From the NCBI RefSeq assembly GCF_003555505.1, contig NZ_CP032152.1, positions 124,001 through 188,000 of the forward strand: a stretch of 64,000 nt of DNA. The letters are read 5' to 3'. Under the pieces are notes generated by a model. That model did no database searches. It had not been told where the DNA came from and saw only the letters and a list, made by a program, of their open reading frames with translations. Source of the DNA: Thermosynechococcus sichuanensis E542. Its GTDB lineage: Bacteria; Cyanobacteriota; Cyanobacteriia; Thermosynechococcales; Thermosynechococcaceae. A program made the position numbers and the translations under genes. Shown here one piece after another: positions 42,206 through 47,427 of this stretch (positions within the stretch are counted from its first letter, which is position 1; the number at the start of each line of letters is the position of its first letter).

Positions 42206-42439
42206 ATGATTGAAAAAATTGCCATGGGTCTGTGGGCATTTTCAGCCGTTGGCCTAATTATCTTGGTCTTGCTCCACAGTCCCAAGGGGGATGGCCTCGG
42301 TGGTATCGGCGGTCAAGCCCAGCTTTTTACCAGCACTAGAAGCGCCGAAACTACCTTAAACCGGGCGACGTGGACATTGACGGTGCTATTTATGGCTCTC
42401 ACCGTTGCTCTGAGTGCGGGTTGGCTGCGTTCAATTTAG
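42206..42439 (+). CDS. secG: Preprotein translocase subunit SecG
   Basis: 77 residues from the ATG at 42206, which has GAGG upstream. Two helices (~5-25, WAFSAVGLIILVLLHS; ~52-72, LTVLFMALTVALSAG) separated by GDGLGGIGGQAQLF, the conserved SecG loop. The upstream in-frame start at 42173 gives an unlikely N-terminus. Accessory subunit of the SecYEG channel. Confidence 0.93.
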   Translation: MIEKIAMGLWAFSAVGLIILVLLHSPKGDGLGGIGGQAQLFTSTRSAETTLNRATWTLTVLFMALTVALSAGWLRSI

Positions 42440-42459
42440 CTCAATTTAGTTGAGTTGGC

Positions 42460-42957
42460 GTGTCTTTCTCCTTTGCGATTCGTCCAGCCACCCCGGCGGA
42501 TGTCCCAGTTATCTTCCAACTGATCCAAGCGCTTGCAGCCTATGAAAAGCTCAGCCACGCCGTAACGGGGACAGAGGAAGCACTGCGGCAGCATCTGTTT
42601 GGCGATCGCCCCTATGCCGAGGTACTCCTTGCCCATACCGCCACAGAAGTCATTGGCTACGCCCTGTTTTTCGCTACCTACTCTACCTTCCTCACGCGCC
42701 CCGGTCTTTGGCTAGAGGATTTGTTTGTGCTTCCTACCTATCGGCGCCAAGGGGTGGGCACCGCTTTACTGAAGGCATTAGCACGGCTGGCTTGCGATCG
42801 CGACTATGGCCGCATCGAGTGGAGCGTTCTGGACTGGAATAGGCGTGCCATCCAATTCTATGAGCGCCTAGGTGCGACTGTCTTGCCCGATTGGCGTATC
42901 TACCGCCTTAGTGGTGAGGCCTTGACGACCCTTGGGAGCGCTCAGGAAATCGGTTAA
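42460..42957 (+). CDS. GNAT family N-acetyltransferase
   Basis: 165 residues from a GTG. Acetyl-CoA-binding loop RRQGVGTALL, LEDLFVLPTYR, and VLDWNRRAIQFYERLGA. Overall resembles diamine/spermidine acetyltransferases, but the substrate is not certain. The last 50 bp overlap the kinase-derived pseudogene on the opposite strand. Confidence 0.9.
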   Translation: MSFSFAIRPATPADVPVIFQLIQALAAYEKLSHAVTGTEEALRQHLFGDRPYAEVLLAHTATEVIGYALFFATYSTFLTRPGLWLEDLFVLPTYRRQGVGTALLKALARLACDRDYGRIEWSVLDWNRRAIQFYERLGATVLPDWRIYRLSGEALTTLGSAQEIG

Positions 42958-43453
42958 GCTTTTTTCCTAAATACTGCCCTAGGAAATAGGCCAGTTCTTC
43001 GAGATCCGTTGATGGAGAGAGGCTTCGCTGCGTAAGCACGAGTTGCTGATTGCCCCCCGCAAGGATAAGTCGAGCAGGAACTATATCATCATCATTATCA
43101 TCAGTCGCAGATCGAGGAGTATCAATTCGATAGCCGGGGTAAAACTCGATAGTTTGAAGAGACCTGCGCGGTAGTACTTTTCTAGACAATCGGATTCCAA
43201 AAAGATAGGTTTCCAATTGGAGGGCTTCCCTAAGATTTATCTCCTCCTTCGACATTCCCCTGCCCAAAAGGAAGAGGTTGAGCACCACCTGTTCATAGCG
43301 TCGCCGATCCAAGGCTAAGTAGATCTGCTGCCCAGCATTGGAGGCCAACTCCCGCAGCAGTTCATAGCGATCGCCCAAAATTTGACAGACCAAAGAATGC
43401 TGAGGATGAATTTCCCGATGTTTGCTCAATGCCACGTGGTTGTTATGAACCAT
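42908..43453 (-). pseudogene. Internally deleted paralogue of the neighbouring Ser/Thr kinase
   Basis: 181 residues from the ATG at 43453. Residues ~24-75 match the kinase start (QILGDRYELLREL, LALDRRRYEQVVL); residues ~82 onwards match the kinase's last 100 residues (RKVLP, TIEFYPG, LEELAYFLGQYLG). The catalytic loop, DFG, activation segment and both membrane helices are missing in between, without a frameshift. The lysine of the ATP site is Asn59 (VVLN versus VVLK). It also has a novel N-terminus and an acidic DDNDDD insert. Not a kinase. It may be a relic or a small regulator; the frame being intact argues it is not long dead. Confidence 0.75.
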
Positions 43454-43472
43454 GGGGTATCTTCCGAAAACC

Positions 43473-43716
43473 CATTCCTGAAGGAATGACCCGGTGCGCG
43501 GCAAACCTCGGCGTTAAGGGCGGGGAAGAGCCGTGCTATAATCAAATTGCCAATTATGGCCTACGGCAGGACATGCCGGAAGTTACGCCTGAGGAGACAC
43601 GAGCAGCGGTTGCGCGCTCGGCCCAGGAACCCACCGAAGCGAATCAGAAGCAGCTCAATGCTGTGTCTGAACGCCGTAGGAATCCCTGTCCTTTAGGGCA
43701 GGGAGGATGTCAACAA
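43473..43716 (+). mobile_element. Remnant 3' end of an IS200/IS605-type element
   Basis: Between the two kinase paralogues lies the tail of an IS605-like unit: a frame resembling a TnpB C-terminal tail (RSAQEPTEANQKQL), then a hairpin CCCTGTCC-TTTA-GGGCAGGG at 43684-43703 and GAGGATGTCAA, the usual look of a cyanobacterial IS605 right end. Another perfect hairpin, CATTCC-TGAA-GGAATG, lies at 43473-43488. No transposase core is left. The remaining bases to 43852 hold nothing I can name. Confidence 0.62.
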
Positions 43717-43852
43717 TGAGATGCGCCATAACGTTCCCCCCACTGGCCAGTTCTATCCTAGCAACTGCAACTCTTTTTACGAGGAGAGCACAGCCTCAGG
43801 TGAAAGACAGTGTCGAATGGCTTGATCATATTTCAGAAAAGTCTGGATCGAT

Positions 43853-45247
43853 TTAAGTTTTACTTTCAACCACCCGTCGCCCCAGATAGCGGCCAAGGGT
43901 GTAGGCCAACCATTCCAAATCCTTGGAGGTCACGCTAGGGGCATTTTCAGTGAGTTCGATCGCTTGGCTACCGGCACGAATGACCAGTTTGCTCGATAGC
44001 TCTTGATCGCCCTCGCGATCGCGGTAAGTGCCTTGGGGCTGAAATTCAATCTGTTCAATCACTTCAAGGGGCAGGACTTTGGGACGACGCCAGCGGAAAC
44101 CAAGGATATGTTCGTAGAAGCGCAGATCTTTACTCGTTACCAGCAGCACCTGCCATCCCAATAGGGTGTAAAGAATGCTGCCGATGAGGCCTAAGCCCAC
44201 TGCAAGGTGACCTGTGGCAAAAACAGCCATCAGCCAAAAGCCAGAACTAATCGCCACGCTGTACCAGACCACCAAAAAACCATTCCAAACCACTGCAAAG
44301 AGAATCAGGGAGAATAGACTGGCATTAAATCCAACAGGGGGAATTTGCACCAGTAGCCCTTGGGGTGTTTCTCTCACCTGTAGGCGGGAACCGTAGGGTG
44401 GTGTTTTTGCCCTGAGGAACACATTTCGGGGTGACGTGTCCAGTTGCTTCAGGGCTTGGCGAGCCGCAGTCGCAGAGTCAAATCGCTCCTCAAGGGCAGG
44501 GGCAACCATTTTTTCTAGCCAGCGGATAAAGGGAGGACTCAAGGAGACCAAGGGTTGAAACTGAACCCGCAGCTCCTTTTGTGGCAGTTCATCAGGGGGG
44601 GTGCCCGTTGCCAAGCAGATGAGGGTCATTCCCAAAGTGTAGAGATCACTAGCGGGCAAGGTTTTACCGCCGAATTGTTCCGGAGGCATATAGCCATAGG
44701 TACCAACCACGGTTCGGGTGCTGTCTGCGATCGCTGTTTGTACTGCCCCAAAATCCACAAGATAGACCTTGCCAAGATCATGACCGGAGCGATCGCCTAG
44801 GAGAATATTTGTCGGCTTAATATCGCGGTGAATCACCGGCGGTTGGCGACTATGGAGATAGATCAAAATATCCAGCAGGCGATCGGCCAGTAACCGCAAA
44901 TCCTCTTCGCTAAACACTCGTCCTTCTGCTTGCCATGTGGCGAGGGATTTTGCCTCAATGTAGGTTTGAACGAGGGCAAAGCCCTTGAGATCAGGGGTAT
45001 TGATTTCAAAGTAGTCGAGATAGCGGGGAATGGCCGCATGATCCAAGGTTTGCAGCACAGCCGCTTCCCTTTCAAAGAGCTTAAAGTCGTCCCATGTCAT
45101 GCCGCCACCAAAGAGCAGCAGCTTCAGCACCACCTGTTCATAGCGACGCCGATCTAACGCCAGATAGGTGCGCCGCCCCGGATGAGACCCCAGTTCGCGC
45201 AGCAGTTCATAGCGATCGCCCAAAATTTGACCAATCATCTCCGCCAC
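43853..45247 (-). CDS. Membrane-bound serine/threonine protein kinase
   Basis: 464 residues. Kinase domain ~8-275 with Lys42, HRDIKPTN (140-147), DFG (165-167) and GTYGYMPPEQ; the glycine loop is degenerate (GSHPGRR). Two hydrophobic helices at ~310-365, then a C-terminal domain of ~95 residues (RWRRPKVLPLEVIEQIEF, SKLVIRAG) shared with the deleted paralogue. Cyanobacterial STKN type; targets unknown. Start is GTG at 45247 or ATG at 45238; neither has a clear ribosome site. Confidence 0.92.
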   Translation of the reverse strand: MAEMIGQILGDRYELLRELGSHPGRRTYLALDRRRYEQVVLKLLLFGGGMTWDDFKLFEREAAVLQTLDHAAIPRYLDYFEINTPDLKGFALVQTYIEAKSLATWQAEGRVFSEEDLRLLADRLLDILIYLHSRQPPVIHRDIKPTNILLGDRSGHDLGKVYLVDFGAVQTAIADSTRTVVGTYGYMPPEQFGGKTLPASDLYTLGMTLICLATGTPPDELPQKELRVQFQPLVSLSPPFIRWLEKMVAPALEERFDSATAARQALKQLDTSPRNVFLRAKTPPYGSRLQVRETPQGLLVQIPPVGFNASLFSLILFAVVWNGFLVVWYSVAISSGFWLMAVFATGHLAVGLGLIGSILYTLLGWQVLLVTSKDLRFYEHILGFRWRRPKVLPLEVIEQIEFQPQGTYRDREGDQELSSKLVIRAGSQAIELTENAPSVTSKDLEWLAYTLGRYLGRRVVESKT

Positions 45248-45273
45248 ATTTTTTGCCGCTGGCCACCTCTATC

Positions 45274-45936
45274 CTAGCCACTGAGTTGCTGAACAATCTC
45301 TGGGGCAATTTCTTCAAGCACCTTGAGGGCTTTGAGACTGCCTTGAATCAAGTGTGCTGCCCCGCGGGGGTTGCGCAGCATGGCGATCGCCAGTGGCCAC
45401 GGACGCAAATTGCCTTGAGAATCAAAGGCTTGACTCAAATCGGGTAGGTCGCGATCGCCGCCATCACTGATCACCCGCACCATCACAACCGGAATTCCCG
45501 CTAAAGCCTTGAGGAGTGGCACTCCTTCCATATCCACCACCTCCACTCCCCAGCGAGTCGCAAGGGCCTGTTTTTCCTGAACCTGAGAAAGGGTTTTCGC
45601 CGTTGTGATCCCTTTCACCCGTCGCCACGCAGGTGCCAATTTTGCCGATAGGGTCTGGTCTAAAGAATACACTTGCCCTGCTTCATCCTGACAGGTAGTA
45701 TAGACCACCACTTCACCGACACGATCATCAGGACGTAAGCCGCCACAGACCCCCAAGATGAGAACCATGGCAGGCGATTCCTCAAGGGCACTCATCAATG
45801 CCGGTGTGGTCACTGCCGCTGCCCCCGCTCGGATCGGAATAACCACCCCATTGGCGTGCTGTAGCCCTCGCCGTACCGTTTGATATTCTGCCCCTTGGGG
45901 CGCAAGGACGAGGCATGTGGTCATTAATGCCGTCAT
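45274..45936 (-). CDS. Phosphorylase/nucleosidase family protein, probably hopanoid-type HpnG
   Basis: 220 residues, PNP/MTA nucleosidase fold: VLILGVCGGLRP near the N-terminal glycine loop, VVDMEGVPLLKA as the ribose-binding Met-Glu motif, and RVISDGGDRD. HpnG-type members cleave adenine from adenosylhopane in bacteriohopanepolyol synthesis. The divergent squalene synthase gene supports this role. It could instead be an MTA/SAH nucleosidase. Start chosen at the ATG at 45936; a second ATG at 45924 is possible. Confidence 0.75.
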   Translation of the reverse strand: MTALMTTCLVLAPQGAEYQTVRRGLQHANGVVIPIRAGAAAVTTPALMSALEESPAMVLILGVCGGLRPDDRVGEVVVYTTCQDEAGQVYSLDQTLSAKLAPAWRRVKGITTAKTLSQVQEKQALATRWGVEVVDMEGVPLLKALAGIPVVMVRVISDGGDRDLPDLSQAFDSQGNLRPWPLAIAMLRNPRGAAHLIQGSLKALKVLEEIAPEIVQQLSG

Positions 45937-46371
45937 CAATAGAGTTGCAACATTTCAAGGTTGCCTCATGTCTTGACTGGTGGATAGGCCGATCGCGGGC
46001 AATTGAGAAACTGACCAATGGAAAGAGTGTCACACTCAAGCGTCCGCTATCGTGGACGAGAGGCATTTTCCGCCAAATCTGATACCGTTGTTAATTGTTG
46101 AAGCTATGTTATTGTTCTGGCAAATTGTGAGCTATCCGCCATTCTACCTCAGGCAATCTGGGCAACTGTCACAGACCACCTAGACAAACAAAAATGAGTA
46201 TGATAACTATAGACTTTGCTCAATCCTTGTTTGTGGAATTCGTCCCCTGCTGGGTTGCGATCGCGAGGCCTCTTCGGAGAATCGTGAATTGACTGCCCTA
46301 GAGCGTTGGCCTGAGGAACGGTCGAGGATTGACTCAACTATCGATCAATGCGTGTAGGAGTGAACCCCCAT
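45937..46371. other. Long intergenic region between divergent hopanoid-type genes
   Basis: About 435 bp without a gene I can support. It has several AT-rich patches (around 46085-46125 and 46175-46220, with TATGAT at 46199-46204) that could hold promoters for the two divergent genes. One HIP1-like core sits near 46258. A 32-codon frame from 46195 has no ribosome site and matches nothing I know. Confidence 0.5.
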
Positions 46372-47427
46372 ATGATTCAAATGGTGCTGGAGAACCCAGT
46401 TTCCGTCAAGGATGCTGAGCGCTTTTGCCAAGAGATACTCCCCCAAGTCTCGCGCACCTTTGCCCTCAGTATTCGCTTTCTCCCCGGAAATTTGGGTCGG
46501 GCGGTTCTGGTGGCCTATCTCATCTGTCGCATTGCCGATACCGTTGAGGATGATCCGGTTGCCAGTATCCCCGCGAAAACAGCCCTATTGGATCACCTGC
46601 TGGAGTGTTTTGACAGTGCCGATCTAGCCAATAGCTATGGTGAAACCGCACGGGGGGTTCAGGGGGAGCCAGCCCATGTGCAACTGGTGAAAAATACGGG
46701 ACTCGTCTTTGCCCTCTACCGTTCTTTGCCCCTCACGTCCCAACAGCACGTCCAACGCTGGGTCAGCGAAATGGTGCACGGGATGAAAAAATTTATTAAC
46801 CTTTATCCCAATGGCATTCGCATTCAAACCCTCGATGAATATAAAGAGTACTGTTACTACGTGGCGGGTACCGTTGGCTATCTCCTGACGGATTTGTGGT
46901 ATGAGCATTCCCCCAGTATTGGCGCCGATGAATACCAAGTGCTGCTCAAGCGCTGCGCTGCCTTTGGTGAAGCACTGCAAACGGTGAACATTCTCAAGGA
47001 TATTGCTTGGGATGCAGAGCACGAAAATTCAATCTATATCCCCAATGAATCTCTGCTGCTCCAAGGCAGTAGTCATCAGTCCATCCTCAGTGCGGAGCAC
47101 CTTGAGCAAAATCATGCCGCCATTAAGGAATTGATTGCCCTTGCTTGGCATGATCTCGATGAAGCCCAAGCCTACCTGCTATCGGTGCCCAAGGCGGCGA
47201 TTCCGATTCGTCTCTTCTGCGTGCTGCCGCTGCTGTTTGCCTATGCCACCCTGCGCGAACTCACTCACTCGACAGCGATGCTGCAACCAGGGGGTGTGGT
47301 TAAAATTAGTCGTGCAGAGGTGAAATCCCTGATGGTCATGGGACCTTTATCGATTCTCAGTAACCACAGTCTCCGCTGGCTGATTGGCCAAGTGCGGCAG
47401 AAGCCTTTCATCCTTGGCGGACTTTAG
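46372..47427 (+). CDS. Squalene synthase (farnesyl-diphosphate farnesyltransferase)
   Basis: 351 residues from the ATG at 46372, which has TAGGAG about 11 bases upstream; an ATG at 46348 is in frame but less supported. Joins two farnesyl diphosphates head to head and reduces presqualene diphosphate to squalene. Both aspartate-rich sites are present in eukaryote-like form (CRIADTVEDD and NILKDIAWDAEHENSIYIP), with RTFALSIRFLP at the start and YCYYVAGTVGYLLTDLW. No obvious C-terminal membrane anchor. Feeds hopanoid synthesis. Confidence 0.92.
   Translation: MIQMVLENPVSVKDAERFCQEILPQVSRTFALSIRFLPGNLGRAVLVAYLICRIADTVEDDPVASIPAKTALLDHLLECFDSADLANSYGETARGVQGEPAHVQLVKNTGLVFALYRSLPLTSQQHVQRWVSEMVHGMKKFINLYPNGIRIQTLDEYKEYCYYVAGTVGYLLTDLWYEHSPSIGADEYQVLLKRCAAFGEALQTVNILKDIAWDAEHENSIYIPNESLLLQGSSHQSILSAEHLEQNHAAIKELIALAWHDLDEAQAYLLSVPKAAIPIRLFCVLPLLFAYATLRELTHSTAMLQPGGVVKISRAEVKSLMVMGPLSILSNHSLRWLIGQVRQKPFILGGL

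What the first reader, a model, noticed from the sequence alone, without database searches (positions are those of the whole stretch)
42908..45247. Kinase gene and an internally deleted in-frame paralogue flanking a transposon scar
The short gene keeps the first ~50 residues of the kinase domain (with Lys to Asn at the ATP site) joined to its last ~100 residues. Everything that would make it a kinase or membrane protein is lost, yet the frame is intact. This looks like duplication, then deletion, then IS insertion between the copies. The product could be a decoy or regulator of the intact kinase through the shared C-terminal domain.
Basis: partly seen in the sequence, partly recalled or inferred. 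Interest (0 to 1): 0.55.

Follow-up and report, generated by a model that had tools for sequence, protein, structure and literature searches.

The report
Imported, broken pseudokinase gene beside kinase
The short gene is the wreck of a kinase-like gene that was already dead as an enzyme and was imported from a related hot-spring cyanobacterium, then lost its start to a jumping element and its middle to a deletion; it is most likely an ordinary decaying gene rather than a regulator of its intact neighbour.

Summary
In detail: an intact Ser/Thr kinase (A, 43853-45247) and a short in-frame relative (B, 42908-43453) with transposon DNA between. The history differs from the one proposed. B is not a local duplicate of A. 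In two other Thermosynechococcus draft genomes (G009, G005) B-type genes occupy A's locus and, without the window's deletion, had already lost the catalytic residues (Lys, HRD Asp, DFG Asp). The window's B and the last ~130 bp of the adjacent acetyltransferase gene are much closer to G009 (pS 0.15-0.19) than flanking genes are to G009/G005 (0.37-0.49), so B was imported, with a crossover inside the acetyltransferase gene. The transposon unit (43387-43713) is not a scar between genes: it splits B within codon 6 and cuts off its native start. B also lost about 314 codons. All three B copies look damaged; B evolves under relaxed constraint and its remnant lacks three strands of the C-terminal domain. 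Decaying pseudogene is the best reading; a decoy is not excluded but unsupported. Side finding: the inserted unit carries 104 bp of a DNA-methyltransferase gene bounded by the element's TGAC word, as if an IS200/IS605 element used an upstream TGAC as its left end.

The parts
43853..45247 (-). Intact Ser/Thr kinase gene A (464 aa): kinase domain, two predicted membrane helices inserted in a PH-like C-terminal domain
   Evidence: catalytic residues K42, HRD, DFG present
42908..43386 (-). Remnant of the imported B-type pseudokinase gene (from within codon 6 to its stop; its 3' end overlaps the acetyltransferase gene tail-to-tail)
   Evidence: 88-90% DNA identity to G009
43231..43232 (-). Junction of the internal deletion (919 bp present in G009, L129 4494-5412, are absent here)
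   Evidence: between codons
43382..43386 (+). TTGAC target word at which the transposon unit inserted; the two sides are contiguous in G009 (L129 5567/5568) and G005 (L130 4547/4548)
43387..43490 (+). 104-bp fragment of a DNA methyltransferase gene carried by the transposed unit; begins just 3' of TGAC in the G006 gene and ends in TGAC; 98% identical to G006
43491..43713 (+). Non-autonomous IS200/IS605-type element (223 bp) with left and right ends like those of other copies in the genome
   Evidence: TnpA and TnpB in fuller copies; right-end region gives sub-threshold Rfam hits
43714..43729 (-). Original start of B (five codons, MAHLI, and the first base of the sixth) stranded upstream of the insertion
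43730..43767 (-). Remnant of B's original upstream region (homologous to the nucleosidase-kinase boundary of G009/G005)
43768..43852 (.). Junction DNA without a match in the other 10 genomes of the genus that are held; right-hand end of the imported segment
42829..42957 (+). 3' end of the acetyltransferase gene, donor-type (G009/G005-like); left crossover lies just before it
42460..42957 (+). GNAT-family acetyltransferase gene, left neighbour; also beside the kinase locus in the 8 other genomes L129, L130, L132-L137
45274..45939 (-). Phosphorylase-superfamily (PNP_UDP_1) nucleosidase-like gene, right neighbour

Best explanation
B is a decaying xenologous pseudogene. Shown by sequence comparison: the kinase at this locus in the G005/G009 lineage is a pseudokinase with the catalytic residues gone; the window carries a B gene of that type in tandem with the resident kinase A; the segment from the 3' part of the acetyltransferase gene (switch between 42798 and 42829) through B to the nucleosidase boundary (43767) is donor-like, and its right junction shows no visible homology; B lacks ~314 codons in frame; and an IS200/IS605-type unit sits at TTGAC within codon 6 of B, separating it from its start codon and upstream region. 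Order of deletion and insertion is unknown. Inferred: the segment was imported from a relative of the G005/G009 lineage, by natural transformation (homology-facilitated illegitimate recombination); the inserting unit was a 223-bp non-autonomous element that used an upstream TGAC as left end and so carried 104 bp of a methyltransferase gene; and B's open frame is a chance survivor without protein function.
For: B-type genes occupy A's locus in G009 (L129) and G005 (L130), and a search with A found no A in either (drafts, 90 and 92% complete). Catalytic residues: HRDIKPTN is HGNINPTT and DFG is GWG (G009) or GWR (G005), while K42, R141, D142, K144, N147 and D165 are invariant in the 37 chosen A-types. 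Import: pS window-G009 is 0.487 in FKBP, 0.395 in the acetyltransferase 5' part, 0.194 in its 3' part and 0.15 in B (129 codons; 0.21 in the N part alone); window-G005 is 0.368 in the nucleosidase. Diagnostic sites: 18 donor-type and 84 local-type (3 neither) before 42829, 23 and 0 from 42829 on (Fisher p 2.7e-14, or 3.2e-4 with only the 5 sites outside the kinase overlap); those 5 are private to window, G009 and G005 among the 9 sequences aligned. Decay: dN/dS 0.54 for B against 0.08-0.09 for the N-terminal half of A versus three relatives; G009 B has two frameshifts, G005 B a frameshift, its own deletion and a stop. The insertion splits B's start from its body; the two sides are contiguous in G009 and G005. 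Simulation: the remnant frame stays open in 34% of runs with 25 random substitutions.
Against: The window's B is open over 181 codons. dN/dS 0.54 is below 1, though not significantly by counts (25 of 39 changes nonsynonymous, p 0.09), and 0.31 in the N part alone against G009; part of the interval covers time when B may still have worked. G009 and G005 are draft assemblies, so some frameshifts could be assembly errors. B's exact place in the kinase tree is weakly supported. No expression data. The breakpoint used in the Fisher test was chosen after seeing the data, and 18 of the 23 donor-type sites lie where the acetyltransferase gene overlaps the kinase end.
Confidence: 0.85

Rival explanations
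1. B is an expressed mini-protein that regulates kinase A as a decoy: three N-lobe strands plus part of the PH-like domain bind A's partners or A itself.
For: Open frame of 181 codons from ATG; in-frame deletion between codons; N part still 63% identical to A, with pS 0.57 and pN 0.16 against A.
Against: Native start and upstream region cut off by the insertion; no sigma-70-like promoter match in 43380-43860 (0.3 expected by chance, so a weak test); the retained C part starts at about A residue 375, so predicted strands 290-294, 297-302 and 364-370 and both membrane helices are missing, and of the N-lobe three strands remain; relaxed constraint; A itself is broken in G002 and G001, so the kinase is dispensable there.
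Confidence: 0.05
2. One reading: A was duplicated in this lineage, one copy was deleted internally, then an IS landed between the copies.
For: Tandem arrangement and homology.
Against: In the N part B is 90% identical to G009/G005 B but 81% to A over the 112 bp that align; B-type sits at A's locus in those genomes; the IS unit lies inside B.
Confidence: 0.02
3. Ancient tandem duplication A+B in the genus ancestor with differential loss: most lineages lost B, G005/G009 lost A, this lineage keeps both.
For: Explains co-occurrence without transfer; long B stem in the trees.
Against: Synonymous distance window-G009 in B (0.15) is under half of that in the flanking genes (0.37-0.49); the switch to donor-type sites in the acetyltransferase gene is abrupt, and 5 such sites outside the kinase overlap are private to window, G009 and G005.
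Confidence: 0.06

Closest known systems
Cyanobacterial Hanks-type Ser/Thr kinases related to gene A (79 loci besides the genus record L049, 43-51% identity in the best segment; the best 80 of 419 were kept)
   Same: A matches them over nearly its full length with all catalytic residues in the 37 aligned
   Different: B lacks catalytic residues, the C-lobe, the membrane helices and part of the C-terminal domain
Gene import by homology-facilitated illegitimate recombination (PMC3240628, start of abstract seen in the listing)
   Same: One junction inside homologous sequence, the other without visible homology; several Thermosynechococcus strains transform naturally (PMC7005997, passage)
   Different: The import here is old and eroded; the delivery route is inferred
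IS200/IS605-family elements such as IS608 (PMC5934647, passages)
   Same: Insertion 3' of a short target word kept at the left flank, right end flush, TnpA and TnpB in fuller copies
   Different: Target word is TGAC (TTGAC in most copies); at this site the transposed unit extends 104 bp to the left, to another TGAC in the source gene

Membership tests
Hanks-type Ser/Thr kinase (gene B) | Catalytic Lys, HRD Asp and DFG Asp | tested here: not met
   Window B: Lys42 is Asn and the rest of the site is deleted; the longer G009 and G005 copies lack all three
Hanks-type Ser/Thr kinase (gene A) | Catalytic Lys, HRD Asp and DFG Asp, Pkinase domain | tested here: met
Pseudogene (gene B) | Loss of start or frame and of essential domains | tested here: met
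   Start separated by a 327-bp insertion, ~314 codons deleted; the frame of the remnant itself is open
Pseudogene (gene B) | No purifying selection after the lesions | tested here: inconclusive
   dN/dS 0.54 over the whole divergence from G009, not separable from time before the lesions
Pseudogene (gene B) | No functional product | not testable with these tools
   needs transcript and protein data
IS200/IS605-family element (43491-43713) | Insertion 3' of a fixed target word, conserved ends, nothing lost or duplicated | tested here: met
   12 of the 14 other copies fetched had both ends: TGAC before the left end in 12 of 12, GATGTCAA at the right end in 12 of 12; one alignment in a relative spans the joined flanks for 8 of 12 (some of these 8 with small length differences, up to 13 bp, not located)
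IS200/IS605-family element (43491-43713) | Y1 transposase TnpA, often with TnpB, in related full copies | tested here: met
   L154 holds Y1_Tnp (E 1.8e-46) and OrfB_IS605; L153 and L155 hold OrfB_IS605; the element itself is non-autonomous
Homology-facilitated illegitimate recombination | One homologous and one non-homologous junction | tested here: met
   Left switch within the acetyltransferase gene; right junction followed by 85 bp without a match in the genus

The most novel reading that the evidence does not exclude
The 327-bp insertion records a flank-capture transposition by an IS200/IS605-type element: the transposase accepted a TGAC word 104 bp upstream of the true left end, inside a DNA methyltransferase gene, so a piece of host gene moved with the element and was fused to another coding sequence. 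That would be a simple route of gene-fragment shuffling for this very abundant single-strand transposon family.
Probability: 0.6. Interest if true: 0.45.

Novelty: new member of a known kind. Interest (0 to 1): 0.25.

Why it matters
It removes a false lead (a decoy kinase) and replaces it with a chain of ordinary events: pseudokinase formation in one lineage, import by another, insertion and deletion. It also shows that a tandem 'paralogue' can be an imported allele. The methyltransferase fragment carried by the element is the one part that may reach further: IS200/IS605 elements are very common in bacteria (general knowledge), and capture of flanking gene pieces through a surrogate left end would be a general source of gene fusions.

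Tried and rejected
Local duplication and ancient tandem duplication were considered and rejected on synonymous distances and site patterns. A decoy protein was considered; nothing found supports it beyond the open frame. A functional RNA: Rfam gave two hits in 42400-46400, both below gathering score (HgcC 25.4 against 50 bits, sot0042 18.2 against 88) and both over the element's right end, so no RNA gene is claimed. A separate event for the methyltransferase piece was thought less likely because empty site, target word and right end fit one 327-bp unit; microhomology joining could explain the shared TGAC on the left but not the exact right end. The mixed alignment A3 misplaced B's C part and was not used. 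Foldseek gave one match with E at or below 0.001 for the C-terminal model, 8kei_D; the PH-like reading rests on many PH/PTB chains at Z of about 7-10, where the tool warns that Z under 8 may mean only a common arrangement.

Control for flank capture: for 8 of 12 copies one alignment in a relative spans both flanks, so no ~100-bp capture there. Four gave no such alignment: L148 (only right flank plus TGAC matches relatives), L157 (no match in relatives), L158 (both flanks match in G003, G004 and G006 but lie about 114-118 bp apart), and L154 (left and right flank match two distant places in G003). Any of these could hide a second capture, a rearrangement or mere divergence; not followed up. Two further copies fetched, L151 and L159 (both ends not seen), were left out of the 12.

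Literature: (search listings only) listed no paper whose title or abstract start describes flank capture by IS200/IS605; the family name, printed with a slash, matched none of the papers listed, so that search was weak. PMC5934647, PMC8266576 and PMC7005997 were seen as passages only. One search returned one unrelated paper for Thermosynechococcus with pseudokinase. This is not proof of absence from print.

Full report
What is there. The window lies in a 2.65-Mb single-contig genome of the genus Thermosynechococcus (inferred: contig C63 of genus-mate G004 has 62450 bases, the length of a record titled Thermosynechococcus sp. M98_K2018_005). Gene A (43853-45247, minus strand) is an intact kinase of 464 aa. 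The short ORF B (42908-43453 from ATG, or to 43504 from TTG) matches A in two blocks, 63% over 64 aa and 37% over 93 aa. The junction falls between codons at 43231/43232; A residues of about 58-371 are missing.

The insertion is inside B. Compared with G009 (L129) and G005 (L130), window bases 43387-43713 are extra: the bases that match 43386 and 43714 are adjacent in both (L129 5567/5568, L130 4547/4548). On the minus strand, B's original ATG GCG CAT CTC ATT G stands at 43714-43729 and the rest of the gene resumes after the insertion. The first ~22 residues of the ORF read from ATG therefore come from inserted DNA. No sigma-70-like promoter match was found in 43380-43860; 0.3 would be expected by chance, so this says little.

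B was a pseudokinase without the window's deletion. G009's B still has the whole kinase region (residues 1-319 of A at 54%); its HRD motif reads HGN, DFG reads GWG, and Lys42 is Tyr. G005's B, with a different deletion, has HGN, GWR and Asn at position 42. In the 37 A-type sequences that I chose for alignment (window, 4 of the genus, 32 of the other loci), positions 42, 140-142, 144, 147, 165 and 167 are invariant.

B was imported. The 11 genomes of the genus that are held, the window's included, were searched with B. Eight show an A-type gene, intact or broken, and no B; G005 and G009 show B at A's locus, and A was not found in them (drafts of 92 and 90% completeness); the window genome has both. 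Backbone identity puts the window with G003/G004 (FKBP 93-95%, against 84% to G005/G009). Synonymous divergence to G009 is 0.487 in FKBP and 0.395 in the 5' part of the acetyltransferase gene, but 0.194 in its 3' part and 0.15 in B (0.21 in B's N part alone); to G005 it is 0.368 in the nucleosidase on the other side. At sites where G005 and G009 share one base and G003 and G004 another, the window is donor-type at 18, local-type at 84 and neither at 3 before 42829, the last local-type site being 42798, and donor-type at 23 of 23 from 42829 on (test). Eighteen of the 23 lie where the acetyltransferase gene overlaps the kinase end; the 5 outside it (42829-42891) are private to window, G009 and G005 among the 9 sequences aligned. 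In a protein tree G009's B falls with the genus's A sequences rather than with G008/G001 and the outgroups (support 90); in a DNA tree the three B sequences group at 100 on a long stem, placed beside G006 with support of only 50. The 85 bp at the right junction, 43768-43852, match nothing in the other 10 genomes. One homologous and one non-homologous junction is the pattern of homology-facilitated illegitimate recombination (PMC3240628, abstract start in the listing); Thermosynechococcus strains take up DNA naturally (PMC7005997, passage).

B is decaying. G009's B has two frameshifts; G005's B has a frameshift, its own deletion and a stop; both are drafts. Over 129 codons outside the overlap with the acetyltransferase gene, window-G009 dN/dS is 0.54 (0.31 in the N part, 0.99 in the 33 codons soon after the junction), against 0.08-0.09 for the N-terminal half of A versus three relatives. 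The share of nonsynonymous changes does not differ significantly from the neutral expectation (25 of 39, p 0.09). With 25 random substitutions 34% of simulated frames remain open, so the open frame needs no selection. AlphaFold2 models of A (mean pLDDT 79.3) and of its C-terminal part (84.3) show two strands, two long helices, then further strands and a C-terminal helix, closest to PH/PTB-like chains and, at Z 10.0 over 150 residues (rmsd 5.1), to 8kei_D, a chain of the NADPH oxidase 2/p22phox/EROS complex. B keeps only what lies after about residue 375, so it has neither the membrane helices nor the first three strands. The kinase is dispensable in the genus: A is in several ORFs in G002 (L136) and in two in G001 (L139).

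The transposed unit. The 223-bp element 43491-43713 belongs to an IS200/IS605-type family with many copies here; fuller copies carry OrfB_IS605 (TnpB; L153, L154, L155) and, in L154, Y1_Tnp (TnpA). Fourteen other copies were fetched in 13 loci; for the 12 with both ends, TGAC precedes the left end in 12 of 12 and GATGTCAA closes the right end in 12 of 12. With joined flanks, one alignment in a relative spans the junction for 8 of 12; 4 are uninformative (details under Tried and rejected). At B the target is TTGAC (43382-43386) and the right end is flush, but 104 bp (43387-43490) precede the element. They are 98% identical to part of a methyltransferase gene of G006 (L131, Pfam N6_N4_Mtase); there the segment starts right after TGAC, and its last four bases are TGAC. 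G006's gene is an uninterrupted 317-aa ORF at that point, and no other copy of the segment was found in the window genome (in one search, 40 of 62 first-look candidates of G000 were scored). In IS608 the target word stays at the left flank, is needed for excision, and is read by a guide in the element (PMC5934647, passages). The simplest reading is that the transposase took the upstream TGAC for the left end and moved 327 bp. This is inference from one case.

Verdict. The finding is real but ordinary: an imported pseudokinase allele decaying beside the resident kinase. The decoy hypothesis has no support here beyond an open frame. The flank-capture reading is the part worth a survey.

Noticed in passing
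window 43387-43713: Inserted unit joins 104 bp of a DNA methyltransferase gene, bounded by TGAC words, to an IS200/IS605-type element; possible flank capture through a surrogate left end.
   Followed up: partly
window 43856-44401: C-terminal part of kinase A is predicted as a PH-like domain with a two-helix membrane hairpin between its strands; best structural match is a chain of the NADPH oxidase 2/p22phox/EROS complex (8kei_D, Z 10.0, rmsd 5.1 over 150 residues).
   Followed up: partly
L136 3104-4490 and L139 3667-5060: The relative of kinase A is broken into several ORFs in G002 and into two in G001, so the kinase can be lost in the genus.
   Followed up: partly
window 43853-43875: The last residues of A (VESKT) differ from those of relatives (e.g. 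VTQARQDVRSA in L133), apparently because the import junction cuts A's 3' end.
   Followed up: no
L154 161-2000: Full element copy whose left and right flanks match two distant places in G003; rearrangement or another captured flank.
   Followed up: no
L158 168-488: Element copy whose two flanks lie about 114-118 bp apart in G003, G004 and G006, so host DNA or an older remnant was replaced here or there.
   Followed up: no
L060: A contig titled Candidatus Gracilibacteria carries an A-type kinase like those of cyanobacteria (46% identity to A over 5-464); probably a mis-binned contig.
   Followed up: no
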